From: Parahaliea mediterranea
GTDB lineage: Bacteria > Pseudomonadota > Gammaproteobacteria > Pseudomonadales > Halieaceae
Assembly (NCBI RefSeq): GCF_003402235.1
Contig: NZ_QEWO01000002.1
Coordinates: 806,001-870,000 of the forward strand
Direction of reading: 5' to 3'
DNA: 64,000 bases
Positions 25,287 through 53,448 of the stretch are shown piece by piece. Every line of letters begins with the position of its first letter. Within the stretch, counting starts at the first letter, position 1. The notes below the pieces were generated by a model. That model was not told where the DNA came from and searched no databases. It saw nothing but the letters and a program-made list of their open reading frames with translations. Both the position numbers and the translations under genes were made by a program.

Positions 25287-25853
25287 TCACTCAGGAACGA
25301 GTTGGCTATAGTAGGCGGCGAGCGCTTTGAAATCGTCGTTGCCCAGACGCGACAGCGCCGCCTGCATCAACGGATGCACACGCTTGCTGGATTTATAGGC
25401 TTTTAGCTGCTGCTCCAAATAGGCGGCGTGCTGGCCTGCAAGTATCGGCCAATTCTGCGCCACCGGTTCACCGCGCATACCGTGGCAAGCAGAACAATAA
25501 CCCGCCAGGCCCTGACCGCGCTCAACCAATGCGGGGTCACCGCTTGCTGATGTCGTCAGGGGCAACTTGGCATAGTAGTCGGCAAGTTGCTGAATATCTT
25601 CGTCCGACAGCTCTTTGACAAAGGGCATCATGGCTTCGTTTTCCCGCGTGCCGTCGCGAAATGCCGTTATCTGGTCCGCCAGATACGCCGCGTGCTGGCC
25701 GGCGAGATTGGGCCATTGCGCACTGGCTGATTGCCCCTGCTGCCCATGGCACGCAACACAGCTTTGGGCCGGCCCAGGCGCTTCGGCTATCGCTGTACCG
25801 CTCGCCACAGTCAGCACCGTGGCTGCCAGTACTCGATAAACCCTGTTTTTCAT
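25287..25853 (-). CDS. Di-heme cytochrome c4-like protein
   Basis: 188 residues with a Sec signal peptide (cleavage near residue 23) and two heme sites: C32-x-x-C35-H36 (SCVACHGQQG) and C120-x-x-C123-H124 (YCSACHGMRG), each followed by a duplicated NLAGQHAAYL-type domain as in cytochrome c4. Periplasmic electron carrier. It overlaps the preceding monoheme cytochrome by ATGA in the amine dehydrogenase operon, so it probably takes electrons onward to the terminal oxidase. Confidence 0.9.
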   Translation of the reverse strand: MKNRVYRVLAATVLTVASGTAIAEAPGPAQSCVACHGQQGQSASAQWPNLAGQHAAYLADQITAFRDGTRENEAMMPFVKELSDEDIQQLADYYAKLPLTTSASGDPALVERGQGLAGYCSACHGMRGEPVAQNWPILAGQHAAYLEQQLKAYKSSKRVHPLMQAALSRLGNDDFKALAAYYSQLVPE

Positions 25854-26287
25854 TGCTTTCTCCCTGTCGCACCGGTCAACGCTTGTAGTAGCTCGGCGCG
25901 GTATTTGTCGACTTCGTTGAGCGGTTGCTGGCGCAGCTCGCTCACCTCAGCACTTGAATAGGGCTGGAACTCGCCCGTAACGCTATCACCGGCAAATTCG
26001 CGCACCATCCAGTTAAGAACAGACGCAAGGCGCTTGTCGTTTAACGCCGATGTTGCCGAACCGGGTACGCGAACCAGGTACTCACGCCCAGCCTTGCTCT
26101 GCAGGAATACGCCCACCTCGTTCTTCATCCGCGGGACCGAATCCGCGCCGCTACCGTCGGGTGTATGACAGCCCTGGCAATGCAACTGATAATCAAACTG
26201 TGCCTGTTGGTATTCGCGATCGTCAGCGGCAGCCGACGACAGTACCGCGCCGCTCAACAGCGCTAGCACCAGTCCACTGCGGGTCAT
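25850..26287 (-). CDS. Periplasmic monoheme c-type cytochrome of the amine dehydrogenase operon
   Basis: 145 residues, signal peptide then one heme site C37-x-x-C40-H41 (HCQGCHTPDGSG). The ATG at 26287 overlaps the stop of aauA (ATGA), so the two are co-translated; the frame upstream of it is only the shadow of aauA. In Alcaligenes faecalis the gene after aauA also encodes a small periplasmic monoheme cytochrome (known). It is the likely direct electron acceptor of the TTQ enzyme here (inference). Confidence 0.85.
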   Translation of the reverse strand: MTRSGLVLALLSGAVLSSAAADDREYQQAQFDYQLHCQGCHTPDGSGADSVPRMKNEVGVFLQSKAGREYLVRVPGSATSALNDKRLASVLNWMVREFAGDSVTGEFQPYSSAEVSELRQQPLNEVDKYRAELLQALTGATGRKQ

Positions 26288-26805
26288 GACTCTTCCAGGG
26301 CCACTCCCACCACGATGGCGGTGGAACAGTGATAGGCCGCGCTGGTGGTGCCAAGGCACCAGTTGATGTCATTGGTTTTGTCTGGGCGATAGGGTGGGCG
26401 GTCTCCCTCATCGCGCTGGCAAAGACAGGCACCACAGGACGATTTACCGCAGCAATCGTTGTAGGAAATCACATAGTTGCGCCCATCGGCCGGATTGAGG
26501 CAGGTGCCAATCCATGTCACCGGCGACATTTCCGTGCCTGGTGGGCAGGTGTTGGCGCTGCCGCCACAGCAACTGCAAAGAAAACCGTCAATGGCACAGT
26601 AACGCCAGTAGTCACAACTGCTCGGGTCGCCCTCTTCCTGCGGTTGGCCGGCTCCTTGCGCGGCACTGGCGCGTGCTACTGGCAGCAGCGGAATGCTGGC
26701 GGTACCGACCAGAAACCCACCAAGCCCCTTGAGCAATCCGCGACGGGAGCTGCGTTGGGCGAGATCACGACTGCCCTGTTCGATCCATCGGTCGAGAAAC
26801 TTCAT
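26284..26805 (-). CDS. aauA: Aralkylamine dehydrogenase light chain (TTQ subunit)
   Basis: 173 residues. Twin-arginine leader (SSRRGLLKGLGG) then a cysteine-rich mature chain. By alignment from memory the two tryptophans that form tryptophan tryptophylquinone are W98 (SPVTWIGTC) and W149 (NDINWCLG). The supporting aspartates are D73 (CAIDG) and D117 (SYNDCC), and Y158 is present. Fourteen mature cysteines, including the extra pair in CSCC and KSSCGACLC, follow the aromatic amine enzyme rather than the 12-cysteine methylamine enzyme. The residue matching the catalytic threonine after HC is serine (S161). Start overlaps aauD (ATGA). Confidence 0.92.
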   Translation of the reverse strand: MKFLDRWIEQGSRDLAQRSSRRGLLKGLGGFLVGTASIPLLPVARASAAQGAGQPQEEGDPSSCDYWRYCAIDGFLCSCCGGSANTCPPGTEMSPVTWIGTCLNPADGRNYVISYNDCCGKSSCGACLCQRDEGDRPPYRPDKTNDINWCLGTTSAAYHCSTAIVVGVALEES

Positions 26806-27422
26806 GCCTTGTCCGCCTCCACGTATTGCACGCCACTGCGCTTGTTCATGTAATCCTGAATCGATGCGACTTTCAGCTCTTTGGCCTCAAACAGGCTGTC
26901 GAGGTGTTCGCGGGAGTTGATGATGCCCATGGAAGCGATCACCCCGTGCTCGTCAATCAGTACACCAAAAGGCAACTTGGACACGCCGTAGGTTTTACCC
27001 AGCCGTTCCGATACCACGTAGGGAAACGCATCCAGCCCCTTGCGCGCAATGTATCCACGATGGTCATACTCATCGCCGTCACTGGCGAGAATCACTTCAA
27101 GCCATTCGCGCTCAGCGCGCGCCGCGGACTTCAGCGCAGGTGCAAGCTCGTTGCAGATGGGGCAGTCCGGCGACATGAAGAACAGCAGCCGCGAGCGGCC
27201 CGATCCTTTGCCGCCAACAACCAGGGCGCGCCCATCCAGGTCACTCACACTGATCTCCGGCGCATCAGCACCTACCGACAATTGCTGGTTCAACATCAGG
27301 GCACCAGCGGGTGCAACACGCTCGTAGAGCACACCGATTTGCCGCGCCAGGGCGAGGTTTACCAGCACCATGGCCAGAAAGCCTATCCAGAGCACAACAT
27401 TGGATACGATTAACCAATCCAT
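26802..27422 (-). CDS. aauD: AauD/MauD, thioredoxin-like maturation protein for the TTQ subunit
   Basis: 206 residues. N-terminal membrane anchor (about 4-24), then a thioredoxin-like domain with the disulfide motif C87-P-I-C90 (SPDCPICNELAP). MauD-type proteins are needed to fold the disulfide-rich light chain in the periplasm. Gene order B-E-D-A matches the known aau and mau clusters. Overlaps aauA by four bases. Confidence 0.92.
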   Translation of the reverse strand: MDWLIVSNVVLWIGFLAMVLVNLALARQIGVLYERVAPAGALMLNQQLSVGADAPEISVSDLDGRALVVGGKGSGRSRLLFFMSPDCPICNELAPALKSAARAEREWLEVILASDGDEYDHRGYIARKGLDAFPYVVSERLGKTYGVSKLPFGVLIDEHGVIASMGIINSREHLDSLFEAKELKVASIQDYMNKRSGVQYVEADKA

Positions 27423-27425
27423 TCC

Positions 27426-27950
27426 TTACATTCCTCTCGACATACGTTGTGCGTTGCTGATCAACTGCTCACAACACAGATACATTACAATCAGGAACCC
27501 CGCCACCGACAATGCCAGCAGTCCCGTCAGCACGGGCCCCAGGGGCCCCGGCACCCACTGCACCGCCATCAGGCTCAGCATTGCGCACAGCACGTTGCGT
27601 AGGATCAGCAGGGGATCCAGCGCGACATCGGACGCCGGTCCAGCACAACCGCAGCGCTGATCCCGCCGCCCCGAAACAATCTGCACCAGCATCAGCAGGG
27701 CATAGGCCAACAGTATGCCCGCGCAGGCGCCCAATGCCGGCGCGCGCGTCGCGGGCAACAGCAACAGCAGGACTATGCCACCCTCGAACAGCGCCAGCGC
27801 ATAGACCAAAACCCTGACGTGAGCGAGCCCTGGAAAATATCCGGCAATCAGCTCGCCGTAAAAGGATGGGGCTCGAAATTTGTGCCAGGACGAGAGCCCC
27901 ATCAGCCAGACCAGAAAGCCGGTAATACCAAAAACAAGGATGTCAGGCAT
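27426..27950 (-). CDS. aauE: AauE/MauE, membrane protein for light-chain maturation
   Basis: 174 residues with four to five hydrophobic segments; a MauE-family (DoxX/DsbD-like) membrane protein. Cysteines in RRDQRCGCAGPAS and near the C-terminus (YLCCEQLI) could relay reducing equivalents to AauD, which is the proposed role of the family. It sits 3 bases before aauD and 9 bases after aauB. Confidence 0.87.
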   Translation of the reverse strand: MPDILVFGITGFLVWLMGLSSWHKFRAPSFYGELIAGYFPGLAHVRVLVYALALFEGGIVLLLLLPATRAPALGACAGILLAYALLMLVQIVSGRRDQRCGCAGPASDVALDPLLILRNVLCAMLSLMAVQWVPGPLGPVLTGLLALSVAGFLIVMYLCCEQLISNAQRMSRGM

Positions 27951-27959
27951 GACGTGGGC

Positions 27960-29156
27960 CTACTTTGCGCCGTAGAGCATCAGGGGCGTTTCCTGGCCAA
28001 GGCCCGTGAGGGTCTTGAGGTAATCGCCGCTCTGCCCATCGTAGAGCTCTACCGCCATCGTTACCGGGTTAGTGACCAGCAGTTTGGGTTGCTTGCCACG
28101 GCTTACTGCAATCGACAGTCCCCACTCCTGCAGTGGGATACGCAGCACGCGGGACTTTTTCTTCGGGTCGTACACCCAGACCTCCGAGCCGCCTCCGTTT
28201 TGGCTACCGTCTTTCGCATCCGGGTGCATCAGCACATAAAAGCGGCCGAGGTCATCTTCATCGATAATGCCAATACCACCCGGCGCCCAGCCTTCGGCAC
28301 GCTCTGTCTCGGGCACCAGATTCCAGGCCTCGCCCACCTTTGCCTGGGCCCCGCTGAAATCGACCGGCCACACCATGCCGTCGATGCTTGGGAACCAGGC
28401 ACGATCGCCCATGACCGCGGGGCGCTCAAAGATGGGATTGTCATCGGAGCTGAAAAAAGACGCTGTACGTACCTGCTTGTCGATGCTGCCGTCAGCCTTC
28501 AGGGTGGTGGACAGAAAACGACCATCAGCACACAGCGCGCTGAACCCCCGGGTGGCGGTCGGGTAGACAAAGGTGCAACCCGGCGTGGCCACTTCGCTGA
28601 TGATTTCCCGGGTATCAAGGTCAATGATGGTGGCTGAAGAGGCCGGGCTGAAGTTGGCAACGGCAAGCCACTTGCCCTTGTTCAGCAGCAGCAGTGCCTC
28701 ACGCCCGGGCATGCCCATGAAGCGTTTTTTACCGGGCAGGAACACCTCGCCTACCGGGCTGAGTGTTTTCTGGTCCCAGATCGTGAGGTAATCGCGGCGC
28801 TCGCCCCGGGTTCCACGGCTGTGAAAGGTCTCGGTGGCGTAGATTTCGCCGCGCTCGCTGGACTGCAGGATATTGCCAATCAGCGACACATTGAATGTGC
28901 CCTGAATCTGCTCGGCCACGGTGTCTTGCGCCGTATCAACAACAATCACTTTGCCATCGGACATGTGAAAGAACGCCGCATCATGCAGCAGAAACCAGCT
29001 TTCGGGATACTGCTGTGGCAGGGTTTCCACGATGCCAATGGGCTCGATGGGCAGCGGCGGCGGGCGCGACTCAGTCTGTGCGCTGGCTGCACCAGCAGTT
29101 GCCACGGCAAGCACCGCTGCGGCGCAGATCCGCCTTGTCAATGCAGGGTAGGTCAT
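27960..29156 (-). CDS. aauB: Aralkylamine dehydrogenase heavy chain
   Basis: 398 residues, signal peptide (ICAAAVLAVATAGAASA), then a seven-bladed propeller-like chain of the amine dehydrogenase heavy-subunit family (WFLLHDAAFFHMSDGKVIVVD near the front in two parts; GGGSEVWVYDPKKKSRVLRI near the end). It binds no cofactor itself and scaffolds the TTQ light chain in an alpha2beta2 enzyme. Start at 29156 is preceded by AAGGAA; the longer open frame to 29318 covers the tail of the upstream aldehyde dehydrogenase gene and is not coding. Confidence 0.9.
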   Translation of the reverse strand: MTYPALTRRICAAAVLAVATAGAASAQTESRPPPLPIEPIGIVETLPQQYPESWFLLHDAAFFHMSDGKVIVVDTAQDTVAEQIQGTFNVSLIGNILQSSERGEIYATETFHSRGTRGERRDYLTIWDQKTLSPVGEVFLPGKKRFMGMPGREALLLLNKGKWLAVANFSPASSATIIDLDTREIISEVATPGCTFVYPTATRGFSALCADGRFLSTTLKADGSIDKQVRTASFFSSDDNPIFERPAVMGDRAWFPSIDGMVWPVDFSGAQAKVGEAWNLVPETERAEGWAPGGIGIIDEDDLGRFYVLMHPDAKDGSQNGGGSEVWVYDPKKKSRVLRIPLQEWGLSIAVSRGKQPKLLVTNPVTMAVELYDGQSGDYLKTLTGLGQETPLMLYGAK

Positions 29157-29211
29157 AATGAATTCCTTGTTTTTCTTACCGAGTATAGTTTTCTGCAAGA
29201 AAAGCACCAAC

Positions 29212-30633
29212 TTACACCTTACTGACCTGAAGGGTCTGGATACTGGTGTACTCCTCAAGTCCGTAGCGGCCAAACTCCACCCCAAAGCCAGACTCCTTAA
29301 CCCCACCAAAGGGCGCATCAGGCTGGATCATCGCGTGATTGTTGACCCAGGCGGTGCCGCACTCCAGGCGCGATGCCAACCGGGTGGCGGCCTCGATATC
29401 ACTCGACCAGACCGAACCGCCCAGCCCGTTGGTGCTGTCGTTGGCCCGGCGCAGGGCATCCTCGACATCAGAGAATTTCAACACCGGCAGAATGGGACCA
29501 AAGGGCTCTTCGCGCACCAGGCGGGTGCCTTCGTCGATATCCGCTACGATGGTGACAGGAAAGAAGTACCCCGGCCCTGGCAGGGGCTCACCCCCGGTGA
29601 GAATGCGAGCGCCGCTGGCCTTGGCGTCCGCCGCTATGGCGCAAACCTTGTCGAACTGGGGTTTGTTCTGCACCGGTCCGAAGTCCACCTCGCCGTCACC
29701 GGGGCCCGTTTTTACGCTGGCCGCAATGCCGGCCAATGCCTGGCACAATTCATCGTACACCGCCTCATGCACGTAAAGTCGCTTCAGGGCCGCACAGGTC
29801 TGGCCATTGTTGATCAGCGCAGTGGCGAATATCTTGGGTGCAACCGCGGCCACATCCACATCGGGCAGCACAATGGCCGCATCGTTCCCGCCCAACTCCA
29901 GGGTAAGGCGCTTTAAATTGCCGGATGCGCCCTGCATGATTTTTTTGCCTGTTGGTGTAGAGCCGGTAAAGACAATTTTGTCGATACCCGGGTGACTGGT
30001 CATTGCCGCACCCAGGCTGCCGTCACCTGTAACAATATTGAATACCCCGGGCGGCAGAAGCTCATTGATGATCTCGGCGGCGCGCAGCGTGGTGAGCGGC
30101 GTAAACTCAGAGGGTTTGATCACCACGGTATTGCCGCTGCGCAAGGCCGGCATGGTGTGCCAGATGGCAATCAGCAGAGGGTAGTTCCAGGGGGTAATGG
30201 AAGCCACCACACCCAGGGGCTTGCGATGCACCTCAATGCGCGCTTCGTCGTTGTCCTGAATAATATCAACAGGCAGTGTCAGGTCCGCCGTGGCGTGACA
30301 CCAGGCAACGGTGCCCCCCATTTCGAACTGTGCGCCCAGCCCGGCAAAGCCACCCATTGGCTTGCCCTGCTCCTGCACCAGCAACTGGGCCAGTTCGTCG
30401 GCGTGGCTCGCCAGCGCGGCGCCGATGGCATGGACCCGTTCAGCGCGCGCGCTATCGGACATGTCGCGCCAGGCGGGAAAGGCCTGACGTGCGGCATCTA
30501 CGGCCGCGTCAAGGTGTCCGGAGGTTGCCTGAGGGCACTGGGCGATAACGGTTTCAGTGGCGGGGTTGAGGACGGGAAAGTGCTCGTCGGCACTCACCTT
30601 TTCCCCATTAATGATCATCTGATACTCAGACAT
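29212..30633 (-). CDS. Aldehyde dehydrogenase, probably arylacetaldehyde-oxidising
   Basis: 473-residue NAD(P)-dependent aldehyde dehydrogenase with catalytic C280 (NNGQTCAALKR), E246 (TLELGGND), N150 (TPWNYPL) and K173 (VIKPSEF). It leads the operon, 55 bases before aauB. Its natural substrate is therefore likely the arylacetaldehyde released by the amine dehydrogenase, giving phenylacetate or hydroxyphenylacetates for the paa and hpa routes. That substrate is inferred from position; the sequence alone only gives the superfamily. Confidence 0.88.
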   Translation of the reverse strand: MSEYQMIINGEKVSADEHFPVLNPATETVIAQCPQATSGHLDAAVDAARQAFPAWRDMSDSARAERVHAIGAALASHADELAQLLVQEQGKPMGGFAGLGAQFEMGGTVAWCHATADLTLPVDIIQDNDEARIEVHRKPLGVVASITPWNYPLLIAIWHTMPALRSGNTVVIKPSEFTPLTTLRAAEIINELLPPGVFNIVTGDGSLGAAMTSHPGIDKIVFTGSTPTGKKIMQGASGNLKRLTLELGGNDAAIVLPDVDVAAVAPKIFATALINNGQTCAALKRLYVHEAVYDELCQALAGIAASVKTGPGDGEVDFGPVQNKPQFDKVCAIAADAKASGARILTGGEPLPGPGYFFPVTIVADIDEGTRLVREEPFGPILPVLKFSDVEDALRRANDSTNGLGGSVWSSDIEAATRLASRLECGTAWVNNHAMIQPDAPFGGVKESGFGVEFGRYGLEEYTSIQTLQVSKV

Positions 30634-30769: not shown

Positions 30770-31960
30770 TCAGGCGGTTGCGCTGGCGCTGCGGTGCAGG
30801 CGCCGCCAGTGGTCCAGCAAGGGCACGAGAATCAACAGGTAAGAAGCAACAAACAGACCGATACCGGCAAGAACGACAGCGCGATAACCGCCCACCGGCA
30901 ACAGGGAGGCAGCAAAGGCAGGCCCGACTGACAGCCCCAGCATCTGGGCAGCAACAGCATAGGACACCACCCGCCCTTTGCGGTCAAAACTGGCCATTGC
31001 GCCCAACAGGAAGGGATGGGTCATATTCCAGGCGAAGTTATAAAGGCACACGGTTACCGCATAGGCCACAGCACTGAAGGGGCCAAGTAGCCAGAGCAGT
31101 GTCAGCGCCCCGCCCAGGATACCCACCGCCAGAGGCCAGGCCCGGCCATACCGGTTACCCAGCACAGCAGCCACCAACGCCCCTGCGATGCCCAGGAACT
31201 GGGACAGCATGAGCCCGTTGGCAACTGCCTGCTCCTGCAAGCCGGCATTCATGCCAATCAGGAAAAGATAGGCCCAGATCACCCCCTGGGCGAAGAAATA
31301 GGTAAACATGGCGCCGATAGCCAGGCCCCGGCCGGTGGCGGGCAAGTCTACCGCGTCGGCCTCCACCACGCAGTGCTCGCCCAGGGTCGCAGGCACCACG
31401 CGCACAAACAACAGGCCGCTGGCGCCGAATAGAGCGAAACAGACAATCAGGCCCTCAACCCCAATGGCGGCAATCAGCTCGGGCATGACCCACAGACCCA
31501 GCGCACCGTAGGTGAGCACCCCCATGATCAAAAAGCCAAAGTTCCTGTCGGGTTTGTCAGTCAAACCGACTTGGGTAAAGGTCAGCGACACAAGCCCGCC
31601 GGAACCCAGCCCGGCCAGAAAACGGCAAGCGGTAAACAGCCAGGGCTCGGTTGTCAGCAGGGACAGCAGGTTGCCAAGAACAAACAGGATGATGGATGCG
31701 ACTGTAACGCGGTATGCCGGGGTACGATGGCCACTCAATGCCAGCGCTACGGTGGTGAGCGCTATGCCCCACATCTCTGCCGAGGCAACGTAACCAACCT
31801 GTTGCTCTGTCAGGCCAAAGCCGGAAACCAACCCCTGCACAAACCCCGGCTGGACAATAAACACCGCGGCTCCAATGGTGCTAAGGTAAATAACGCCAAA
31901 CAGGGCCGCCGCACTGTTGATGTCCAGCCCCCGGCCGGTTTTATTATTTATCGGCATCAT
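30770..31960 (-). CDS. Major facilitator superfamily transporter
   Basis: 396 residues with about 12 membrane segments (first: NSAAALFGVIYLSTIGAAVF). Resembles the MFS carrier at 16877-18037 in length and in the shared LYNFAWN segment. Lies upstream of the aldehyde dehydrogenase/aau operon and divergent from the LuxR-type regulator; a role in uptake of amines or their acid products is plausible but unproven. Two ATG codons in tandem at 31960 and 31957. Confidence 0.82.
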   Translation of the reverse strand: MMPINNKTGRGLDINSAAALFGVIYLSTIGAAVFIVQPGFVQGLVSGFGLTEQQVGYVASAEMWGIALTTVALALSGHRTPAYRVTVASIILFVLGNLLSLLTTEPWLFTACRFLAGLGSGGLVSLTFTQVGLTDKPDRNFGFLIMGVLTYGALGLWVMPELIAAIGVEGLIVCFALFGASGLLFVRVVPATLGEHCVVEADAVDLPATGRGLAIGAMFTYFFAQGVIWAYLFLIGMNAGLQEQAVANGLMLSQFLGIAGALVAAVLGNRYGRAWPLAVGILGGALTLLWLLGPFSAVAYAVTVCLYNFAWNMTHPFLLGAMASFDRKGRVVSYAVAAQMLGLSVGPAFAASLLPVGGYRAVVLAGIGLFVASYLLILVPLLDHWRRLHRSASATA

Positions 31961-32030
31961 GCTGTGCCCAAGCTGTTATGCGATCTGGCATTATGCAGAG
32001 ATTGTTCCTGCCACCCCATCCGCCATAAGT

Positions 32031-32744
32031 ATGATAACTGCGCCTCCTATCCAATTCCCCAACCGTTTCCAGCAAGAGAGCCTCAACCTGATTGAGCGCC
32101 TGCTGCCGGTAGACTCGTCTGGCTTTTACCTTGTGGGGGCCGACATGCGCCACAGCGGCGTTGTCCTGCACAATATCTCCGCCGATGCCGAGCGCCGCTA
32201 CACCCAGCGCTACCAATTCAGCGATCCGCTACACCCCCGCCATTTCCACCAGAGTGAAGTCTGCCTGGTGAATATCGACGAGGTAGTGGAGGAATCTGAA
32301 CTGCTGCAGTCGGATTACTACCGTTCGTTCATGGCGCCCCTTGGGCACCGGCATGTGACTGATATGTATTTTCGTCGTGATGGTGACGTGGTCGCCATCA
32401 TGACTTTGCTGCGCACCGTCCGCTCTGGCCCTTTTCGTCCCGATGAGCTGGCCATACTGCGGTCACTGCAGCCGTTTCTTCAGTACTCTTTGAACGCCAC
32501 CTATGTCCCGGCCCGGCAAAGCCAGCGTAGCGCGATGCAGGCGCGCTACGGTTTGACAGACCGGGAACTGGATGTGGTCGAACAGGTGGTCAGTGGCGCC
32601 AGCAACAAGCGCATCGCCCAGGAACTGTCACTCAGCCTCGCCACCGTAAAAACACATTTGCAGCACATTTTCTACAAAATGAAGGTTTCCTCACGCACGG
32701 AGATGAGCGCTCGTATCCTGGGCGACCTGGATGCGGATGCCTGA
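32031..32744 (+). CDS. LuxR-type helix-turn-helix regulator
   Basis: 237 residues. N-terminal sensor-like region without a clear phosphoacceptor domain, then a C-terminal LuxR helix-turn-helix (about 165-225) containing YGLTDRELDVVEQVVSG and LSLATVKTHLQHIFYKM. Start chosen at the ATG at 32031, since the frame upstream overlaps the divergent MFS gene. It is followed after 92 bases by the SDR/phospho-lyase/kinase operon, its likely target. Confidence 0.8.
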   Translation: MITAPPIQFPNRFQQESLNLIERLLPVDSSGFYLVGADMRHSGVVLHNISADAERRYTQRYQFSDPLHPRHFHQSEVCLVNIDEVVEESELLQSDYYRSFMAPLGHRHVTDMYFRRDGDVVAIMTLLRTVRSGPFRPDELAILRSLQPFLQYSLNATYVPARQSQRSAMQARYGLTDRELDVVEQVVSGASNKRIAQELSLSLATVKTHLQHIFYKMKVSSRTEMSARILGDLDADA

Positions 32745-32836: not shown

Positions 32837-33634
32837 ATGCTGGGAAAACTGGAAGGGAAAGTCGCGATTGTTACCGGAGCGGGCCAGGGCATTGGCGAAG
32901 GTATCGCCCGCGTATTCGCCGCTGCGGGCGCAAAGGTTATCGTAGCCACCCGCTCTGCCGGCAACGGCCAGGAAACCGTGGATGCAATTCGCGCCGATAG
33001 TGGGGAAGCGACGCTGGTACAGTGCGACGTCGGTTCCCGCCAGGCGGTAAAGGATCTGGTCGCAGCCACACTCGACACCTACGGCACCGTCGATATTGCC
33101 ATTCACAACGCCGCCGTATATCCACTGCACTATATCGAGGATCTGTCCGACGAGGTGCTGGACCAGACCCTCAACGTGAACATGAAGGCCGGTGTATGGC
33201 TGACCCAGTACTGCCTGCCGGAGTTTCGAAAGAAGCGCTGGGGACGGATCATTTTCACCTCGTCGGTGACAGGCCCCACCGTCGCCATGCCGGGCACCTC
33301 TCACTACGCAATGTCCAAAGGAGGCATGAACGGCTTCATCCGCACTGCCGCGCTGGAATACGCGCGCGAGGGTATCACCGTGAACGGCGTAGAACCGGGT
33401 TACATCCTGACCAAAGCAATGTCTGCGCTGGGTGACGAGGACGAACTGAAGGCGATGGCAGCCTGCATCCCCGCCGGCCACCTTGGCAACCCCGACGATA
33501 TCGCCAATACCATGCTGTTCCTTGCCGCCGAGGAGGCCGGCTATATTACTGGCCAGACCATCATCGTTGATGGCGGCTCCACGCTACCTGAGAGCCAGGT
33601 GGTGATGGATGGCTTCTACGAACAGCGCGGCTAA
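32837..33634 (+). CDS. Short-chain dehydrogenase/reductase
   Basis: 265-residue classical SDR: cofactor motif TGAGQGIG (13-20), NAA at about 91-93, catalytic S143 (FTSSVTG), Y157 and K161 (YAMSK). Start preceded by AACGAGGAGAAC. First gene of a three-gene operon with the PLP enzyme and kinase (19-base gap to the next). It might oxidise the benzylic hydroxyl of an amino alcohol or reduce an aldehyde; neither can be told from sequence. Confidence 0.85.
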   Translation: MLGKLEGKVAIVTGAGQGIGEGIARVFAAAGAKVIVATRSAGNGQETVDAIRADSGEATLVQCDVGSRQAVKDLVAATLDTYGTVDIAIHNAAVYPLHYIEDLSDEVLDQTLNVNMKAGVWLTQYCLPEFRKKRWGRIIFTSSVTGPTVAMPGTSHYAMSKGGMNGFIRTAALEYAREGITVNGVEPGYILTKAMSALGDEDELKAMAACIPAGHLGNPDDIANTMLFLAAEEAGYITGQTIIVDGGSTLPESQVVMDGFYEQRG

Positions 33635-33653
33635 CTTGGCAAAGGAAATTCGC

Positions 33654-34961
33654 ATGAACCACCCATCCACTTCCAATCTGCTGCAACGCCGCTACCGCGT
33701 CCTCGGCAGCCACTCTCCGCTGTTTTACGAAGAGCCACTGCAACTGGTGCGCGGTGAAGACGTCTGGGTCTACGACGCGGATGGCAAACGCTACCTCGAC
33801 ACGTACAACAACGTTCCCCACGTCGGGCACTGCCATCCGCATGTTGTGCAAGCCATCAGCCAGCAGGCGGGCACCCTCAATACCCACACCCGGTATCTGC
33901 ACGAGAACGTGGTGAACTATGCGGAACGCCTACTGGCCAAATTCGCCCCCTCACTCAGCATGGCCATGTTCGCCTGCACCGGCAGCGAAGCCAACGAAGT
34001 AGCCCTGCGCATGGCACGCCACGCTACCGGCAAGCAGGGCATTATCGTCACCGACTTCGCCTACCACGGCAACACTGCTGCAGTCGCCGAACTAGGCACC
34101 GGGTTCATGCCGGAAGCGCAGAACTCCCAGCGCGTGGTCAGCTTCCCTATTCCAGACACCTACCGGACGCCGGATGGGCTGAGCGGCGAAGCCCTGGCCA
34201 ATCACTATCTGCAGGCAGTGCAGCGGGCTATCGACACCCTTGAAGCACGTGGCCTGGGCGTGGCGGGCATTCTTATCTGCCCGGACTTTGCCAACGAGGG
34301 CCTGGTGTATGAACCCGACGGCTTTATCGCGCGTGCGGTAGCACAGGTGCGCCAGGCTGGTGGCCTGTATATTGCCGATGAGGTACAGGGCGGATTTGGC
34401 AGAACCGGCCGCTACTGGTGGTCCCATGAGTGGGCCGGCGTGACGCCGGATATTGTTACCCTGGGCAAGCCGATGGGCAATGGCCATCCCATTTCCGGCG
34501 TGATAGCCAGCGAATCGTTGATTGAATCCTTCGGAGAATGGGGACTGTATTTCAATACCTTCGCCGGCAACCCCGTGTCCTGTGCGGCGGCATCAGCCGT
34601 GCTCGACGTGCTGGAGAACGAAAACCTGCTGCAAAATGCGGTCGAAACCGGCGCATATATCGCGGCCGGGCTGCGCGAACTGCAGTCCCGACATGAACTC
34701 ATTGGCGATGTTCGCGACAAGGGGCTGTTCTTTGGTGTGGAACTGGTCCGGGACCGCGACACCAAAGCAGCCGCCGAAACAGAGGCGCGCGATCTGGTCA
34801 ACGCCATGAAGCAGGCCGGCGTCCTGATCAGCAGCATTGGCAAGCAGAACCAGATTCTGAAGCTCCGGCCCCCGATGAGCTTCCGGCGGGAACACGCCGA
34901 CCTCCTGCTGGAGCGACTCGACGCTTGCCTGCATCAGGTGACGGAGGCGCGCCGTGGCTGA
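33654..34961 (+). CDS. Class III PLP enzyme resembling ethanolamine-phosphate/hydroxylysine-phosphate phospho-lyase
   Basis: 435 residues. PLP lysine K272 (VTLGKPMGNGHP), D242 (YIADEVQGG) and the phosphate-binding GSEAN at 110-114. The segments YLDTYNNVPHVGHCHPHVV and LNTHTRYLHENVV closely follow the AGXT2L (ETNPPL/PHYKPL) branch rather than ordinary transaminases. Those enzymes eliminate phosphate and ammonia from O-phosphorylated 1,2-amino alcohols, giving aldehydes. The next gene, overlapping by 8 bases, is an APH-family kinase, which fits a kinase/phospho-lyase pair. A plain omega-transaminase remains possible. Confidence 0.82.
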   Translation: MNHPSTSNLLQRRYRVLGSHSPLFYEEPLQLVRGEDVWVYDADGKRYLDTYNNVPHVGHCHPHVVQAISQQAGTLNTHTRYLHENVVNYAERLLAKFAPSLSMAMFACTGSEANEVALRMARHATGKQGIIVTDFAYHGNTAAVAELGTGFMPEAQNSQRVVSFPIPDTYRTPDGLSGEALANHYLQAVQRAIDTLEARGLGVAGILICPDFANEGLVYEPDGFIARAVAQVRQAGGLYIADEVQGGFGRTGRYWWSHEWAGVTPDIVTLGKPMGNGHPISGVIASESLIESFGEWGLYFNTFAGNPVSCAAASAVLDVLENENLLQNAVETGAYIAAGLRELQSRHELIGDVRDKGLFFGVELVRDRDTKAAAETEARDLVNAMKQAGVLISSIGKQNQILKLRPPMSFRREHADLLLERLDACLHQVTEARRG

Positions 34962-35985
34962 TTTCGATACCCTGAGCGCCGCTGAACAAACAGCTCGACT
35001 CACCAATCTCGCACAATCAGCGCTGCCCTTGTGGGGGTTGGCGGCGAGCGAACTGCATCTCATCAAGTTTCGCGAGAACGCCGTTTTTCGTGTGTCCGCC
35101 CCCGGCGGGGAGAAATACGCACTACGCATCCATCGCCACGCCTACCACAGCGATGAGGCACTGCGCTCGGAACTGCAATGGATCGCGGCCCTTGATGCCG
35201 GAGGCATTCGCGTGCCGTCGATCATCCCCACCAACGATGGCAGGCTGTTTGCTCATGCGCAGTCCAACGATGTGCCCGGTGAACGCCAGATCGATCTCTT
35301 TGAGTGGGTGGAAGGCAAGCAGCTTGGCGCTGTTGAAGTCGGGCTCGACCCTGGCCAGTCCATCGCCCATGTCTACGGTACCATCGGCGAGCTGGCCGCC
35401 AGGCTTCACACCCAGGCGCTGGCCTGGCAACCGCCAGACGGCTTCCGCCGGCACGCCTGGGATGCCGACGCACTGGCGGGCGACAATCCCCTGTGGGGAA
35501 GATTCTGGGACTTGGCAGCGCTGACGCCCTCGCAACGGTCGCTGCTGCTTGAGGCAAAGGATCGCGTTTACCGCGGCCTCAAGGAGTATCAGGCAGACCC
35601 AGAAAATTCCAACCGCTACAGCATGATTCACGCCGACTTTGTGGCAGAAAATCTGCTGGTTAACGGTAGCGATGTACGCTTGATTGATTTTGACGATGCC
35701 GGGTTTGGCTGGCACTTGTTCGAGTTGGCAACGGCCCTGTATTTTGAGCGTGGCGAGCCCCACTTCAACGAGGCTTACAGGGCTCTCATCGCCGGCTATC
35801 GCAGCGAATGCCACCTGCCGGACACACAGCTGGTGCACATGCCGCTTTTCTTTGCTGCACGCAGCTTCACCTACCTGGGCTGGGTACACACACGCCCCGA
35901 AACAGAAACGGCACGCAACCTGACGCCAGCGTTGATTGAGATGTCCTGCGAGGCAGTCAACGACTATTTCAGCGCCAGCCAGTAA
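34954..35985 (+). CDS. APH/choline-kinase-family phosphotransferase (probable amino-alcohol kinase)
   Basis: 343 residues of the aminoglycoside phosphotransferase fold. Brenner-type catalytic loop H226-A-D228-F-V-A-E-N233 (IHADFVAENLLV) and metal-binding D245-F-D247 (LIDFDDAG). GTG start at 34954 overlaps the phospho-lyase stop. Human hydroxylysine kinase (an APH-fold enzyme) works with an AGXT2L-type phospho-lyase (known), so this gene probably phosphorylates the hydroxyl of an amino alcohol to create the lyase substrate. Candidates are ethanolamine-like or aryl-ethanolamine compounds. Confidence 0.83.
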   Translation: MADFDTLSAAEQTARLTNLAQSALPLWGLAASELHLIKFRENAVFRVSAPGGEKYALRIHRHAYHSDEALRSELQWIAALDAGGIRVPSIIPTNDGRLFAHAQSNDVPGERQIDLFEWVEGKQLGAVEVGLDPGQSIAHVYGTIGELAARLHTQALAWQPPDGFRRHAWDADALAGDNPLWGRFWDLAALTPSQRSLLLEAKDRVYRGLKEYQADPENSNRYSMIHADFVAENLLVNGSDVRLIDFDDAGFGWHLFELATALYFERGEPHFNEAYRALIAGYRSECHLPDTQLVHMPLFFAARSFTYLGWVHTRPETETARNLTPALIEMSCEAVNDYFSASQ

Positions 35986-42931: not shown

Positions 42932-44023
42932 TTATTTCTGGTCAAAATCAACAATCACCCGATCAGATATCGGGTGGGCCTGGCAGGTCAGGATAAGGCC
43001 CGCTTCAAGTTCACCGGGCTCCAGGGCATGGGTGATGTCCATGTCCACTTCACCTTCAATCAGCCGGGCCTTGCAGGTGGAGCATACGCCCCCTTTGCAG
43101 GAATACGGCAAATCGAGACCATGACTGATGCCAGCGTCCAGCACATTTTCACCGTCCGCAGTGAGGTCGAAGGTGCTGGATCGCCCGTCCATCACCACTG
43201 TCACCTCACTGACTTTGCCGGCAAAGGCCTGGGCGCGCGCGTGGTGCTTTTCGACAATTTCACGGGCGTCGTCTGCAGAGGCAGCAAACAGTTCGTAGTG
43301 AATGTTCGATTCGGCAACCCCGACGCCGCGCAGGCCACGGGACACTTCAGAAATCATCGACTCGGGGCCACAGATAAAATAGTGGTCGAAGCTGTCGAGG
43401 CTAATCAGCTGCCGGTTGAGCTCGGCCCCTTTGCGATTGTTCAACCTGCCGTTCAGGATATCCGCCCCCTGGTCCTCCCGACTGAGAATGTTGATCCATT
43501 GAAAGCGGGTCAGGTAGCGGTTCTTCAGGAAGCTGAGTGTCTCCCTGAACATAATGGTATTGGTGCGCTGATTCCCGTAGAGCAGAGTAACCGAAGCCTC
43601 GGGCTCGACTTCCAGGATCGACTTGATGTTCGATACCACCGGCGTAATGCCGCTACCAGAGGCGATAAACAGGTATTTGCGCCCCGCAGCCGGATCCAGC
43701 GGCACAAAAAAGCTGCCCTGGGGCGGCATCACATCAATACTGTCGCCGGCCTGCAGGCTGTCGTTGATGAAGTTGGAGAAAACGCCACCATCCACCCGTT
43801 TCACCGCCACTTGCAGCTGACGATCGTTAACCCCGGAACAAATCGAGTAGGACCGACGCAGCTCAGCCTCCCCTACCGTGGCGCGCAGGGTCAGATATTG
43901 GCCAGGGTCGTGGCGAAAGGTGTCCTGCAAAGGGCCGGGAATATCAAAGCTCAAGCGCACCGCATAATCGGTCTCTGGCTCTACACGGCCTACCGTCAGG
44001 CTATGAAACTGAACGTCGTTCAT
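42932..44023 (-). CDS. paaE: PaaE, reductase subunit of phenylacetyl-CoA epoxidase
   Basis: 363 residues: FAD-binding domain (RRSYSICSG), NAD(P)H domain (YLFIASGSGITPVVSNIKSI) and a C-terminal plant-type [2Fe-2S] ferredoxin domain with the CKGGVCSTCKARL cysteines and a later cysteine in LTCQAHP. It feeds electrons to the PaaABCD di-iron epoxidase. Confidence 0.95.
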   Translation of the reverse strand: MNDVQFHSLTVGRVEPETDYAVRLSFDIPGPLQDTFRHDPGQYLTLRATVGEAELRRSYSICSGVNDRQLQVAVKRVDGGVFSNFINDSLQAGDSIDVMPPQGSFFVPLDPAAGRKYLFIASGSGITPVVSNIKSILEVEPEASVTLLYGNQRTNTIMFRETLSFLKNRYLTRFQWINILSREDQGADILNGRLNNRKGAELNRQLISLDSFDHYFICGPESMISEVSRGLRGVGVAESNIHYELFAASADDAREIVEKHHARAQAFAGKVSEVTVVMDGRSSTFDLTADGENVLDAGISHGLDLPYSCKGGVCSTCKARLIEGEVDMDITHALEPGELEAGLILTCQAHPISDRVIVDFDQK

Positions 44024-44031
44024 GGCGACTC

Positions 44032-44583
44032 CTAGAAACTCTTGAAATAATCAAATGGCTCGCGACAGTCCAGGCACTGAAACAGCGCCTTGCAGGCGGT
44101 GGAACCGAATTCGCTGATAGAACGGACCTCGACACTGCCACAGTGGGGGCAGGCCGGGTCTGAGCGCACATCCCCGGCGACGGGTGCCGCAATACCATAG
44201 GCTTGCAGGCGGGCCCGGGCGTCGTCGTCCATCCAGGTGCTGGACCAGGCGGGAGAGAGCTGCGTGAGCACACGATGTTGCCCGTAGCCAGCGGTGGTTA
44301 ACGCCGTAGCTATTTCCTCGCGAATCACGTCCATGGCCGGGCACCCTGAATAGGTGGGGGTAATGGTGACTACAACCGTCTCCCCTTCGCGCTCAATGTT
44401 CTGCAACACCCCCAGCTCCCAGATACTGATCACCGGGATTTCCGGGTCTTTCACTGCGTCCAGAACACACCAGAGCTCCGGATGCGACGACTGGGCACGG
44501 CGTTGCCGGCGCTCGTACTCCTCATGCGGCAGCAGCGGTATAGTGGAACCAGAAACACAGGGCTGCGTATTCACCATTGGCAT
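44032..44583 (-). CDS. paaD: PaaD, phenylacetyl-CoA epoxidase assembly subunit
   Basis: 183 residues. N-terminal MIP18/DUF59-like domain (LDAVKDPEIPVISIWELGVL) and a C-terminal zinc-ribbon-like part with CPHCGS and FQCLDCREPF. PaaD is needed for activity of the epoxidase, probably through iron or cluster assembly. The 5' end overlaps paaC by 13 bases; 44577 is an alternative start. Confidence 0.93.
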   Translation of the reverse strand: MPMVNTQPCVSGSTIPLLPHEEYERRQRRAQSSHPELWCVLDAVKDPEIPVISIWELGVLQNIEREGETVVVTITPTYSGCPAMDVIREEIATALTTAGYGQHRVLTQLSPAWSSTWMDDDARARLQAYGIAAPVAGDVRSDPACPHCGSVEVRSISEFGSTACKALFQCLDCREPFDYFKSF

Positions 44584-45335
44584 CCGGGATAAGCGCGCTG
44601 TACAAACTGCAGGTCACTCAGCAGGTGACCAAGGTGCTCGGTGTGATACCCGGTCCGGCCGCCAACCACTTCCCAGCCACCGCTGGGAACAGTCACAGCG
44701 GTTTCACTGAAGACGCTGTGGACCGCTGCCTGCCAGGGGGCTTGCAGCGCAGCCCGGTCGACAGCAATACCCAACTCATACAAAGCCGTTTCCAGCTCAT
44801 CCATCAGGAAGAGCTCTGGCGTATAGCCCCAGAGGTCATCCAGTGCATTCTGCAGCCGGCGCTGTGACTCTTCGGTGCCATCGCCCAACCTCAGCATCCA
44901 CTCACGGCTGCGCCGCTGGTGGTAGCGCGATTCCTTGATCGCCTTGCCTGCAATGGCCGCCAGCTCGCTATCCGACGAGCGCCCGAGCTGATCAAGAAAC
45001 AGCAGGGAGTGTTCATCGAGCAGATACTGGCGCACCATGGTGAAAGCGAAGTCACCACGCGGCAGCTCATTGATTAACAGGTTGGTGAACTCGCGGCAGT
45101 CCCGCTGGTAAGCCAGGGTGTCTTCGGTGCATTCGCCACCACGCAGTTGGGCTGCGTAACCGAGGAACATGCGGGCGCGGCCGATGTAATCCAGCGCCAC
45201 GTTGGTCAGCGCCAGATCCTCTTCCATGAACGGCCCGCGACTGCACCACTCAGACAGCCGGTGGCCCAGAATCAGGGCGTCGTCACCCAGGCGTACCGCA
45301 TAGTCCGCAGTTGCCTGTGTCAGATCGTTGTCCAT
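44571..45335 (-). CDS. paaC: PaaC, structural subunit of phenylacetyl-CoA epoxidase
   Basis: 254 residues of the ferritin-like PaaC family (DDALILGHRLSEWCSRGPFM; ESRYHQRRSREWMLRLGDG). Forms the heterodimeric core with PaaA. Start at 45335 (MDNDLTQ) gives the family N-terminus; the frame further upstream overlaps the gap to paaB. Confidence 0.94.
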   Translation of the reverse strand: MDNDLTQATADYAVRLGDDALILGHRLSEWCSRGPFMEEDLALTNVALDYIGRARMFLGYAAQLRGGECTEDTLAYQRDCREFTNLLINELPRGDFAFTMVRQYLLDEHSLLFLDQLGRSSDSELAAIAGKAIKESRYHQRRSREWMLRLGDGTEESQRRLQNALDDLWGYTPELFLMDELETALYELGIAVDRAALQAPWQAAVHSVFSETAVTVPSGGWEVVGGRTGYHTEHLGHLLSDLQFVQRAYPGCQW

Positions 45336-45348
45336 CGTCGGCCTCGCC

Positions 45349-45633
45349 TCACATATTGTTGACTTTGTCCGGCAACTGGTAATGCGTTGCATGCCGGTAG
45401 GGTTTGTCATCGAGCGGGTCGTAGAAGCTCTCGCAGTCGCTCTCCTGGGAGGCGTGAATGTCAGACGAATTCACTATCCAGATGCTGACCCCCTCACTGC
45501 GCCGGGTGTAGAGATCGCGGGCGTATTCCATGGCCTGCTCGGCATCTTCGGCATGCAGGCTGCCCACGTGTTTGTGATCCAGCCCACGACGCGACCGGAT
45601 AAACACTTCGTACAATTTCATATGATGTGACAT
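45349..45633 (-). CDS. paaB: PaaB, small subunit of phenylacetyl-CoA epoxidase
   Basis: 94 residues, family length. VFIRSRRGLDHKHVGSLHA and DIHASQESDCESFYDPLDDK regions match PaaB, which bridges the PaaAC units. Nine bases after paaA. Confidence 0.95.
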   Translation of the reverse strand: MSHHMKLYEVFIRSRRGLDHKHVGSLHAEDAEQAMEYARDLYTRRSEGVSIWIVNSSDIHASQESDCESFYDPLDDKPYRHATHYQLPDKVNNM

Positions 45634-45642
45634 GTCTACTTC

Positions 45643-46605
45643 CTAGGCTGCGCGATTGGCACGCTGTTGTTTTTTGGCTTCGTGGGCGGCAATCGCATCA
45701 CGCACCCAGGCGCCCTCCTCGTGGGCGCTGATGTGATGCTCCAGTCGCTGACGATTACAGGGGCCGCTGCCGTTGATCACCCGGTTAAACTCCTTCCAGT
45801 CGATCTCACCGAAGTCGTAATGCCCACGTTCTTCATTCCACTTGAGGTCGGGGTCAGGCAGGCTGATGCCGATCACTTCGGCCTGTTCCACGGTCTGGTC
45901 AACAAATTTCTGCCGCAGTTCGTCGTTGCTCTGCCGCTTGATCTTCCAGGTCATGGACTGGGCGGAGTGGGCGGACTCGGCGTCGTGGGGGCCGAACATC
46001 ATCAGCGACGGCCACCAGAAGCGATTCACGGCATCCTGTGCCATCTCGCGCTGTGCGGCGCTGCCCTGCATGAGGGTCATCATGATGTGGTAGCCCTGGC
46101 GTTGGTGAAAACTCTCCTCCTTGCAGATACGCACCATACCGCGGGCGTAGGGGCCGTAGGAGGTGCGCTGCAGTGACACCTGGTTCACGATGGCCGCGCC
46201 ATCCACCAGCCAGCCGATCGCGCCAATATCGGCCCAGGTCAGCGAAGGGTAATTGAAAATGGAGGCGTACTTGGCGGCACCGGAATGCAGGGCCTGAATC
46301 AACTCTTCCCTGCTGATACCGAGGGTTTCGGCCGCACTGTAGAGATACAGTCCATGGCCACACTCATCCTGCACTTTGGCCAGCAATACGGCCTTGCGGT
46401 GCAGCGTTGGCGCGCGGGTGATCCAGTTGCCCTCGGGCTGCATGCCAATCACTTCAGAGTGAGCATGCTGGGAAATCTGCCGAATCAGGTTCTGGCGGTA
46501 CTTCTGTGGCATCCAGTCCCGGGGTTCGATCTTTTCCTCGGCGTCAATTCTCGCCTGAAAATCCGCATTCAATTGTGCTTCCGTCTGCAAGCTGTCGTTG
46601 GTCAT
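45643..46605 (-). CDS. paaA: PaaA, catalytic di-iron subunit of phenylacetyl-CoA epoxidase
   Basis: 320 residues, ferritin-like di-iron fold. Metal-ligand regions include [20 protein letters not shown] and [15 protein letters not shown] (Glu/His ligands). It makes the 1,2-epoxide of phenylacetyl-CoA. Start at 46605 preceded by GGAGAGAGG. Confidence 0.96.
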
Positions 46606-46618
46606 AACCTCTCTCCTG

Positions 46619-48270: not shown

Positions 48271-48272
48271 GG

Positions 48273-49064: not shown

Positions 49065-49096
49065 ATTCAGTTCCTTATCACTGGTTGCACAGGACG

Positions 49097-51133: not shown

Positions 51134-51189
51134 GATCTGGTTACTCCTGTTTCTGTGCGAATACTGGTTGGCGGTTGTTTCTGTGGATA

Positions 51190-53304: not shown

Positions 53305-53448
53305 GGCGCACCTCTTCTGAACAGGATTGATCCTGAGTATAGTAGTCGCAATTTTATGACACAATTTTCTTATTACTTTTCGATATTTAGTAGTGTATAT
53401 ATGAATCAACCCGGCCTCGGACATGCCGCACAGGCGATCATCTAGCTC
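53305..53448. promoter_or_regulatory. Divergent paaY-paaX control region
   Basis: 144 bases, AT-rich at 53330-53405. No clear dyad; TATATATGAATCA at about 53395-53407 resembles a half-site of the TGAATCA kind but was not matched convincingly in the paaK promoter. Confidence 0.35.

What the first reader, a model, noticed from the sequence alone, without database searches (positions are those of the whole stretch)
32837..35985. Kinase plus phospho-lyase pair that may open beta-hydroxylated aromatic amines
An AGXT2L-type PLP enzyme overlaps an APH-fold kinase, with an SDR in front. Known eukaryotic pairs of this kind (hydroxylysine kinase with PHYKPL; ETNPPL on phosphoethanolamine) turn 1,2-amino alcohols into aldehydes, ammonia and phosphate. 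In this island the chemically matching substrates would be octopamine, phenylethanolamine or noradrenaline. Phosphorylation and elimination would give arylacetaldehydes, exactly what the nearby aldehyde dehydrogenase and the paa/hpa routes consume. I know of no described bacterial route of this kind for aryl ethanolamines.
Basis: partly seen in the sequence, partly recalled or inferred. Interest (0 to 1): 0.75.

Follow-up and report, generated by a model that had tools for sequence, protein, structure and literature searches.

The report
Bacterial kinase–lyase route for aryl-ethanolamines
A three-gene operon in a marine-type bacterium looks like a way to break down hormone-like aromatic amino alcohols by first adding a phosphate and then expelling it with ammonia, and the same gene pair tends to travel with aromatic-ring degradation genes in other bacteria.

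Summary
An SDR (32837-33634), a class III PLP enzyme (start probably 33654, to 34961) and an APH-fold kinase (34954-35985, 8-base overlap) form one likely operon. The PLP enzyme groups with solved phospho-lyases (5g4i, 6tor), not transaminases. The nearest solved kinase is a microcompartment aminopropanol kinase, so amino-alcohol kinases of this kind are known in bacteria. In 19 of 80 kinase loci, in differing gene orders, the pair lies by aromatic amine dehydrogenase, phenylacetate (paa), homoprotocatechuate (hpa) or tyramine oxidase genes. Phenylacetyl-CoA epoxidase is in 42 of 49 kinase genomes tried, against 21 of 370 sampled Gammaproteobacteria (samples drawn differently); 6 of the 7 exceptions have HpaE. 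In 57 relatives, 9 of 9 with a close kinase have both PaaA and an amine dehydrogenase light chain. No biochemistry was possible; the substrate (phenylethanolamine, noradrenaline, octopamine) is inferred. New variant of a known kind.

The parts
32837..33634 (+). SDR, predicted amino-alcohol/amino-ketone dehydrogenase (inferred: interconverts enantiomers through the aryl aminoketone)
   Evidence: adh_short_C2; nearest solved chains 6ci8/6ci9, E 6e-62; an SDR of 54% or more lies in 33 of 80 loci
33654..34961 (+). class III PLP phospho-lyase, Schiff-base Lys K287 in the numbering of the 450-aa ORF that begins at 33609
   Evidence: 5g4i phospholyase E 2e-124, 6tor E 9e-104, dialkylglycine decarboxylase E 8e-59; tree; lyase-type residues
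34954..35985 (+). APH-fold small-molecule kinase, predicted aryl-ethanolamine O-kinase
   Evidence: AlphaFold2 model mean pLDDT 92.6, Foldseek rank 1 = 6ef6 aminopropanol kinase, TM 0.81
31917..32744 (+). LuxR-type regulator just upstream (ORF start uncertain), found at 40% or more in 17 of 80 loci
   Evidence: GerE
30770..31960 (-). MFS transporter, divergent; found at 40% or more in 16 of 80 loci
29212..30633 (-). aldehyde dehydrogenase, predicted to oxidise the arylacetaldehyde
   Evidence: Aldedh; none of the 25 NCBIfam families shown of 43 reaches its cut-off; PDB 8yen 451 bits, 4o5h phenylacetaldehyde DH 354 bits; 45% or more in 21 of 80 loci, counting two further reference ALDHs
25287..29318 (-). 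TTQ amine dehydrogenase cluster (heavy chain, MauE, thioredoxin-like, light chain, small ORF, cytochrome c), aromatic type
   Evidence: light chain nearest aromatic amine DH; heavy chain aromatic amine DH 188 bits against methylamine DH 106
42932..54381 (.). phenylacetate (paa) cluster: PaaE, D, C, A, thiolase, hydratase, PaaZ, PaaK, hexapeptide protein (-), PaaX (+)
   Evidence: PaaA over the TIGR02156 cut-off
7485..12945 (+). homoprotocatechuate (hpa) cluster: HpaE, isomerase, HpaH, HpaI, HpaA, HpaD
   Evidence: HpaE, HpaH, HpaA and HpaD over NCBIfam cut-offs, HpaI 364.9 against 368.8; PF02962 isomerase

Best explanation
The operon is a funnel for 2-amino-1-arylethanols (phenylethanolamine, and probably noradrenaline- or octopamine-type amines). 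The kinase phosphorylates the benzylic hydroxyl; the PLP enzyme eliminates phosphate, and the enamine hydrolyses to arylacetaldehyde and ammonia; a nearby aldehyde dehydrogenase makes the arylacetate; paa takes phenylacetate and hpa takes 3,4-dihydroxyphenylacetate. The SDR probably interconverts the enantiomers, or feeds in the matching aminoketone. The aromatic amine dehydrogenase next door would handle the amines without the hydroxyl and give the same aldehydes, which would explain why the two sets keep company. Shown here: gene order, family membership, linkage and co-occurrence. Inferred: every catalytic step and the substrate.
For: PLP enzyme: 47% identical to phospholyase 5g4i, 40% to ethanolamine-phosphate lyase 6tor, 34% to dialkylglycine decarboxylase, 32% and 31% to the two closest own-genome paralogs; inside an 86-row clade with 98% SH-aLRT; N67, N68, R95, W271, G286 and N316 in 86 of 86 lyase-side rows. 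Kinase: D228, N233 and D245 in 93 of 93 rows compared, with 6ef6 and four long-branch rows left out; nearest fold 6ef6. Linkage: amine dehydrogenase light chain in 11 of 80 loci, expected 0.32 by density in kinase genomes, Poisson P 6e-14 if loci were independent, which related ones are not; paa 5, hpa 4, tynA 1, together 19 of 80; gene orders differ, and 25 linked rows of 84 need 17 gains or losses on the kinase tree. Named examples: Mesorhizobium AR07, permease-PLP-kinase-paaX-paaABCDE; Agrobacterium CFBP7129, Rhizobium BT03 and Shinella with hpa; Phyllobacterium with tyramine oxidase. A permease cluster whose one scanned member resembles ethanolamine permease lies before the pair in 6 loci, three of them linked to paa or amine dehydrogenase. 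Genome content: PaaA in 42 of 49 kinase genomes against 21 of 370; 6 of the 7 without PaaA have HpaE over cut-off; 57 relatives without the own genome: 9 of 9 with PaaA (3 of 48 others, Fisher P 2e-8) and 9 of 9 with MauA (5 of 48, P 2e-7).
Against: No substrate was measured. 61 of 80 loci show no aromatic gene at my thresholds (some contigs are under 7 kb). Motiliproteus (G469) has the kinase but no PaaA and no HpaE over cut-off. The plasmid locus of Pseudomonas MPC6 lies by choline genes and that of R. pomeroyi shows no hpa within 12 kb. Lyases from an E. coli plasmid and from Chelatococcus fall inside the same PLP clade but sit by GABA and ectoine genes, so the clade is not aromatic throughout. 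Distant kinases in relatives (G015, G021, G030) do not go with PaaA. The nearest solved kinase has an aliphatic substrate by its title. The own genome has no HpaB (PF03241) and no HgmA, so octopamine would need another hydroxylase. Kinase genomes may simply be large and versatile; the Fisher tests ignore kinship; HpaE has no class-wide baseline here (2 of 14 control genomes are over its cut-off).
Confidence: 0.7

Rival explanations
1. It is a shell-less version of the aminopropanol route of the Rhodococcus/Mycobacterium microcompartment: aminoacetone and 1-amino-2-propanol (or ethanolamine) are turned into propionaldehyde (acetaldehyde), and the aromatic neighbourhood is incidental.
For: Nearest solved kinase is 6ef6, titled microcompartment-associated aminopropanol kinase; nearest solved SDR 6ci8/6ci9 (that this is the aminopropanol dehydrogenase is recalled); the RMM loci hold phosphotransferase, SDR and aminotransferase and are tied to amino-2-propanol (PMC4207490, passages of section 28).
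Against: The window kinase is only 34% identical to 6ef6, which lies on a very long branch; no microcompartment shell domain among 48 window ORFs scanned with Pfam; linkage to paa, hpa and amine dehydrogenase and PaaA in 42 of 49 genomes have no reason under this reading.
Confidence: 0.15
2. The substrate is an aryl beta-hydroxy amino acid (phenylserine type); elimination gives an arylpyruvate that is then decarboxylated to the arylacetaldehyde.
For: Same vicinal amino-alcohol chemistry; a pyridoxal-dependent decarboxylase is annotated near the pair in Shinella and Ruegeria, and a 43% relative of the Shinella one lies in L058 and L064; it could equally make the amine.
Against: No arylpyruvate decarboxylase was noticed beside the pair in the annotated regions, though none was searched for; the named lyase relative 6tor works on an amine without a carboxylate; the ethanolamine-permease relative fits an amine better.
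Confidence: 0.08
3. The PLP enzyme is an ordinary omega-transaminase and the kinase an unrelated APH protein.
For: Both belong to large superfamilies, and annotation calls them aminotransferase and phosphotransferase or the like in the regions fetched.
Against: Tree and residues place it with phospho-lyases; PLP and kinase less than 200 bases apart in 67 of 69 loci.
Confidence: 0.03

Closest known systems
Rhodococcus/Mycobacterium microcompartment (RMM) amino-alcohol locus (aminopropanol kinase 6ef6; SDR 6ci8/6ci9 by recall)
   Same: Same three kinds of enzyme: SDR, class III or other aminotransferase-type PLP enzyme, APH-fold kinase (PMC4207490 passages)
   Different: No shell domain among the 48 window ORFs scanned; kinase 34% identical and on a distant branch; aromatic catabolic neighbours. 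PMC4207490 itself considers the PLP enzyme as an aminotransferase acting on aminoacetone, not as a phospho-lyase
Ethanolamine-phosphate phospho-lyase 6tor (ETNPPL type) and the hydroxylysine kinase/PHYKPL pair (recalled)
   Same: Class III PLP phospho-lyase with the same six tabulated residues; kinase-then-lyase chemistry
   Different: Bacterial operon; predicted aromatic amino-alcohol substrate; 40% identity to 6tor
Phospholyase 5g4i (Arthrobacter aurescens and activity on phosphoethanolamine recalled; the call gives the name PHOSPHOLYASE)
   Same: Closest solved relative, 47%; in the tree it joins Mesorhizobium (paa-linked) and Phyllobacterium (tyramine oxidase-linked) lyases, support 93, on a long branch
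   Different: Its own gene neighbours were not seen here; recalled substrate aliphatic
Octopamine dehydratase, EC 4.2.1.87, in Pseudomonas aeruginosa, with homoprotocatechuate meta cleavage (all recalled; one search found no paper)
   Same: Same net outcome: octopamine to 4-hydroxyphenylacetaldehyde and ammonia
   Different: Described, as I recall, as a single lyase without ATP; no gene known to me; whether that species has this pair was not tested

Membership tests
AGXT2L-type PLP phospho-lyase | class III PLP fold with Schiff-base lysine | tested here: met
   Aminotran_3; K287 in GKPMGN
AGXT2L-type PLP phospho-lyase | groups with characterised phospho-lyases, apart from transaminases | tested here: met
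   86-row clade with 5g4i and 6tor at 98 SH-aLRT; dialkylglycine decarboxylase and 6 of 7 own-genome paralogs on the other side. The seventh (ownL006) fell by L130/L033 on long branches, outside the 86-row clade, and the program warned of the join
AGXT2L-type PLP phospho-lyase | releases phosphate, aldehyde and ammonia from an O-phosphoamine | not testable with these tools
   needs enzyme assay
APH-fold amino-alcohol kinase | APH catalytic residues and fold | tested here: met
   D228, N233, D245, D247 in 93 of 93 rows compared (5 of 98 rows left out); model and Foldseek rank 1 6ef6
APH-fold amino-alcohol kinase | same subfamily as aminopropanol kinase | tested here: inconclusive
   34% identity, very long branch
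RMM microcompartment locus | BMC shell protein genes beside the enzymes | tested here: not met
   no shell domain among 48 window ORFs scanned with Pfam; the rest of the genome was not searched
aryl-ethanolamine catabolism (proposed) | linked to and co-occurring with arylacetate degradation | tested here: met
   with the exceptions named under evidence against
aryl-ethanolamine catabolism (proposed) | growth on aryl-ethanolamines depends on the pair | not testable with these tools
   needs gene deletion and growth test

The most novel reading that the evidence does not exclude
A widespread, so far undescribed ATP-dependent bacterial pathway opens aryl-ethanolamines (phenylethanolamine, octopamine, noradrenaline) by phosphorylation and phospho-elimination; it supplies the missing genes for the old octopamine dehydratase activity (recalled) and means that bacterial phospho-lyases such as 5g4i, known from phosphoethanolamine, may really serve aromatic biogenic amines.
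Probability: 0.55. Interest if true: 0.78.

Novelty: new variant of a known kind. Interest (0 to 1): 0.68.

Why it matters
If true, a gene pair that annotation calls aminotransferase plus phosphotransferase gains a function: degradation of hormone-like aromatic amines. It would tell which bacteria remove octopamine, noradrenaline or phenylethanolamine in seas, soils and on plants, and make an activity without a known gene directly testable with two small enzymes.

Tried and rejected
Transaminase reading: rejected by PDB ranking, tree and residues. Homoserine kinase reading: NCBIfam scores far below cut-offs. Methylamine dehydrogenase reading of the neighbour: the heavy chain scores 188 bits with aromatic and 106 with methylamine dehydrogenase. 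A class-wide co-occurrence test by itself was thin, since only 4 of 370 sampled genomes, own genome included, have the kinase at E 1e-60; I therefore tested genomes of known kinase loci. Comparison with 6ef6: positions nearly fixed in this family but different there include D114, W118, T306, Y307 and G309; without coordinates I cannot say which touch the substrate, so this is not used as evidence.

Papers. Ten searches listed no paper that I could see describing a bacterial kinase/lyase route for aryl-ethanolamines: searches found none; others (1; 4; 12) listed every paper found; others (20 of 84; 15 of 1,072; 40 of 225) showed only the top of the list. Passages read: PMC4207490, PMC8217296 (nothing on the substrate), PMC10537072 (nothing on octopamine breakdown). 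The library lacks most subscription papers.

Rows dropped or chosen before counts. In the 58 relatives, G001 and G049 (E 3e-4 and 5e-4) were not counted as having the kinase; the 10 'close' kinases, own genome included, are those at 49% or more, G017 by a 46-residue fragment at a contig end and G020 by a partial match; G015, G021 and G030 (36-43%) were treated as distant. With those three counted as having it, the figures are 10 of 13 for PaaA and 11 of 13 for MauA. For one search I gave 50 of the 80 loci, chosen mostly for long contigs and named species, not at random; they lie in 49 genomes, some of other classes than the 370. HpaE was searched only in the 7 PaaA-negative genomes, three others and the own genome. 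Thresholds were set by me after a first look; weak heavy-chain-like hits of 32-34% in L067 and L111 were not counted. The 11 plasmid regions were picked by me for variety out of 90 listed hits; 6 of the 11 are linked to paa, hpa or tynA. In one search the rows ownL006, L130 and L033 were left out.
Full report
What is there. Three genes in a row on the + strand: SDR 32837-33634, PLP enzyme (ORF 33609-34961, start most likely 33654) and kinase 34954-35985. Upstream lie a LuxR-type regulator and, divergent, an MFS transporter; then an aldehyde dehydrogenase and the genes of a TTQ amine dehydrogenase. Downstream, after a TonB receptor, an AraC regulator and an SSF symporter, comes a paa cluster. 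At the left end there is an hpa cluster with HpaE, HpaH, HpaA and HpaD over NCBIfam cut-offs and HpaI just below and an isomerase. The amine dehydrogenase is of the aromatic type: heavy chain 188 bits with aromatic against 106 with methylamine dehydrogenase; light chain 161 bits against 155 for one methylamine entry (3c75, whose match takes in the N-terminal part) and 134 or less for the other methylamine entries.

What the enzymes are. The PLP enzyme matches solved phospho-lyases best (5g4i E 2e-124, 6tor E 9e-104, then dialkylglycine decarboxylase E 8e-59). In a tree of 98 rows it lies in an 86-row clade (98 SH-aLRT) that holds 5g4i and 6tor, while dialkylglycine decarboxylase, two second class III enzymes from hpa regions and 6 of 7 own-genome paralogs lie on the other side; the seventh joins two odd rows (L130, L033) on long branches outside the clade, and the program warns of such joins. 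N67, N68, R95, W271, G286 and N316 are the same in 86 of 86 lyase-side rows; in the 9 transaminase-side rows R95 occurs once and the others not at all. The kinase has the APH catalytic residues; its model (mean pLDDT 92.6) matches 6ef6 first, titled microcompartment-associated aminopropanol kinase (TM 0.81, 32% identity). The SDR is nearest to 6ci8/6ci9, which I recall as the aminopropanol dehydrogenase of the same microcompartment. PMC4207490 (passages) describes that locus type as holding a phosphotransferase, an SDR and an aminotransferase, cites work in which an SDR turns amino-2-propanol into aminoacetone, considers an aminotransferase acting on aminoacetone, and takes the RMM2 locus to be for amino alcohol degradation. 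Its reference list gives the L-1-amino-2-propanol dehydrogenase of Rhodococcus erythropolis as promising for double chiral amino alcohols (title seen); that these were pseudoephedrine-like aryl compounds, and that the enzyme is kin to the window SDR, are recalled or inferred.

Linkage. 68 of the 80 have the PLP enzyme within 3.5 kb. In the 69 with both at looser thresholds, 67 are less than 200 bases apart and 67 in the order PLP-kinase. An SDR of 54% or more lies in 33 of 80 loci. Within the loci, at thresholds that I set, amine dehydrogenase genes lie in 11, paa in 5, hpa in 4 and a tyramine oxidase in 1; together 19 of 80. Taking the density of amine dehydrogenase light chains in 49 kinase genomes (59 in 252 Mb), chance gives 0.32 in the 1.35 Mb of loci, against 11 seen; related loci, such as three of Woeseia type, are not independent. 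Gene orders differ, and on the kinase tree 25 linked of 84 rows in loci of 10 kb or more need 17 gains or losses; the 84 rows include the window and plasmid regions that I had picked, and a link beyond the end of a locus counts as absent.

Named plasmid examples. Mesorhizobium AR07: permease, PLP, kinase, paaX, pcaF, paaABCDE, paaZ, with paaK after them on the other strand. Phyllobacterium: aldehyde dehydrogenase, tyramine oxidase, a TetR regulator on the other strand, permease, PLP, kinase, SDR. Agrobacterium CFBP7129, Rhizobium BT03 and Shinella PSBB067: PLP and kinase within some kilobases of hpaE, hpaD, hpaH and hpaI. Ruegeria AD91A: hpaD, hpaE, hpaR, then transporter, aldehyde dehydrogenase, PLP, kinase. 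Without such a link: Pseudomonas MPC6, Sphingobium TomTYG74 (near protocatechuate genes), R. pomeroyi, and two regions found with the PLP query, an E. coli plasmid and Chelatococcus, with GABA and ectoine neighbours. In six loci (three of Sphingomonas or Rhizorhabdus, three of Pseudomonas) a permease of one cluster ends about 1.3 kb before the kinase, with the PLP gene next to the kinase; the one scanned, L115, scores 341 bits on the ethanolamine permease model, below its cut-off of 382. An ethanolamine-like head and an arylacetate tail is what one would expect of an aryl-ethanolamine.

Genome content. PaaA (TIGR02156) is over cut-off in 42 of 49 genomes of the 50 loci that I gave, against 21 of 370 in an even sample of the class, in which the 4 kinase genomes, the own one among them, are all PaaA-positive. 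The two samples were drawn differently and the first includes other classes, so the contrast is not a clean test. Of the 7 PaaA-negative genomes 6 have HpaE over cut-off; Motiliproteus does not. MauA is in 33 of 49. A better controlled test uses 58 relatives of 49 genera: close kinases in 10, PaaA in 13 and MauA in 15, all 10 having both. Without the own genome: 9 of 9 against 3 of 48 for PaaA (Fisher P 2e-8) and 9 of 9 against 5 of 48 for MauA (P 2e-7). Two genera supply two of these nine genomes each, and the test ignores kinship. Distant kinases (G015, G021, G030) do not follow: none has PaaA, one has MauA.

How it most likely works. Kinase: ATP plus 2-amino-1-arylethanol gives the benzylic phosphate. 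Lyase: external aldimine, loss of phosphate, enamine, then arylacetaldehyde and ammonia. Aldehyde dehydrogenase: arylacetate. Ring routes: paa for phenylacetate, hpa for 3,4-dihydroxyphenylacetate. The SDR, not always present, would rescue the other enantiomer or the aminoketone. In this genome phenylethanolamine fits paa and noradrenaline-type amines fit hpa; octopamine would need a ring hydroxylase other than HpaB, which was not found, and HgmA was not found either. A Rieske oxygenase of the VanA type beside hpaD (12926-14089) could serve methoxylated amines; that is a guess. All catalytic steps are inference from family and context.

Against what is known. The chemistry is known (phospho-lyases 5g4i and 6tor; bacterial aminopropanol kinase 6ef6). 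The aromatic use is what appears new. A recalled activity, octopamine dehydratase EC 4.2.1.87 of P. aeruginosa, has the same net outcome; I found no paper on it in the library and did not test that species. Ten searches listed nothing that I could see on a bacterial kinase/lyase route for aryl-ethanolamines, but three of them showed only the top of long lists and most subscription papers are not held.

Verdict. Observation confirmed; interpretation supported by independent genomic evidence, with the substrate unproven. New variant of a known kind.

Noticed in passing
L099, L102, L107, L109, L112: A well-supported kinase subclade without the PLP enzyme within 3.5 kb; it sits by an amidase instead. 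Its partner reaction is unknown.
   Followed up: partly
L033:949-3504 (G030): Kinase and a distant class III PLP domain read in one open frame, a fused version.
   Followed up: no
L059 (Cobetia crustatorum): Two kinase/PLP pairs in tandem around a LuxR gene.
   Followed up: no
window 12926-14089: Rieske oxygenase of the vanillate O-demethylase type beside hpaD; may take methoxy groups off the ring.
   Followed up: no
window 2014-5864: DHDPS-family, DAO-family and Pyr_redox/BFD genes in a row, resembling a hydroxyproline degradation cluster (families; the likeness is recalled).
   Followed up: no
window 58280-63453: FAD_binding_3/old yellow enzyme fusion with SDR, hydratase and acyl-CoA dehydrogenase, like the 2-aminobenzoyl-CoA monooxygenase type (recalled); relatives of the block lie some 5 kb upstream of the operon in L030 and L046.
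   Followed up: partly
L027 (G034) 7153-11653: MFS, PLP and SDR genes each split between two frames in a one-contig genome: sequencing errors or decay.
   Followed up: no
L133, L134, L137, L138: In Rhizobiales and Ruegeria a second class III PLP gene, a Tm-1-like ATP-binding protein and, in three of the four, a HAD hydrolase recur near the pair.
   Followed up: no
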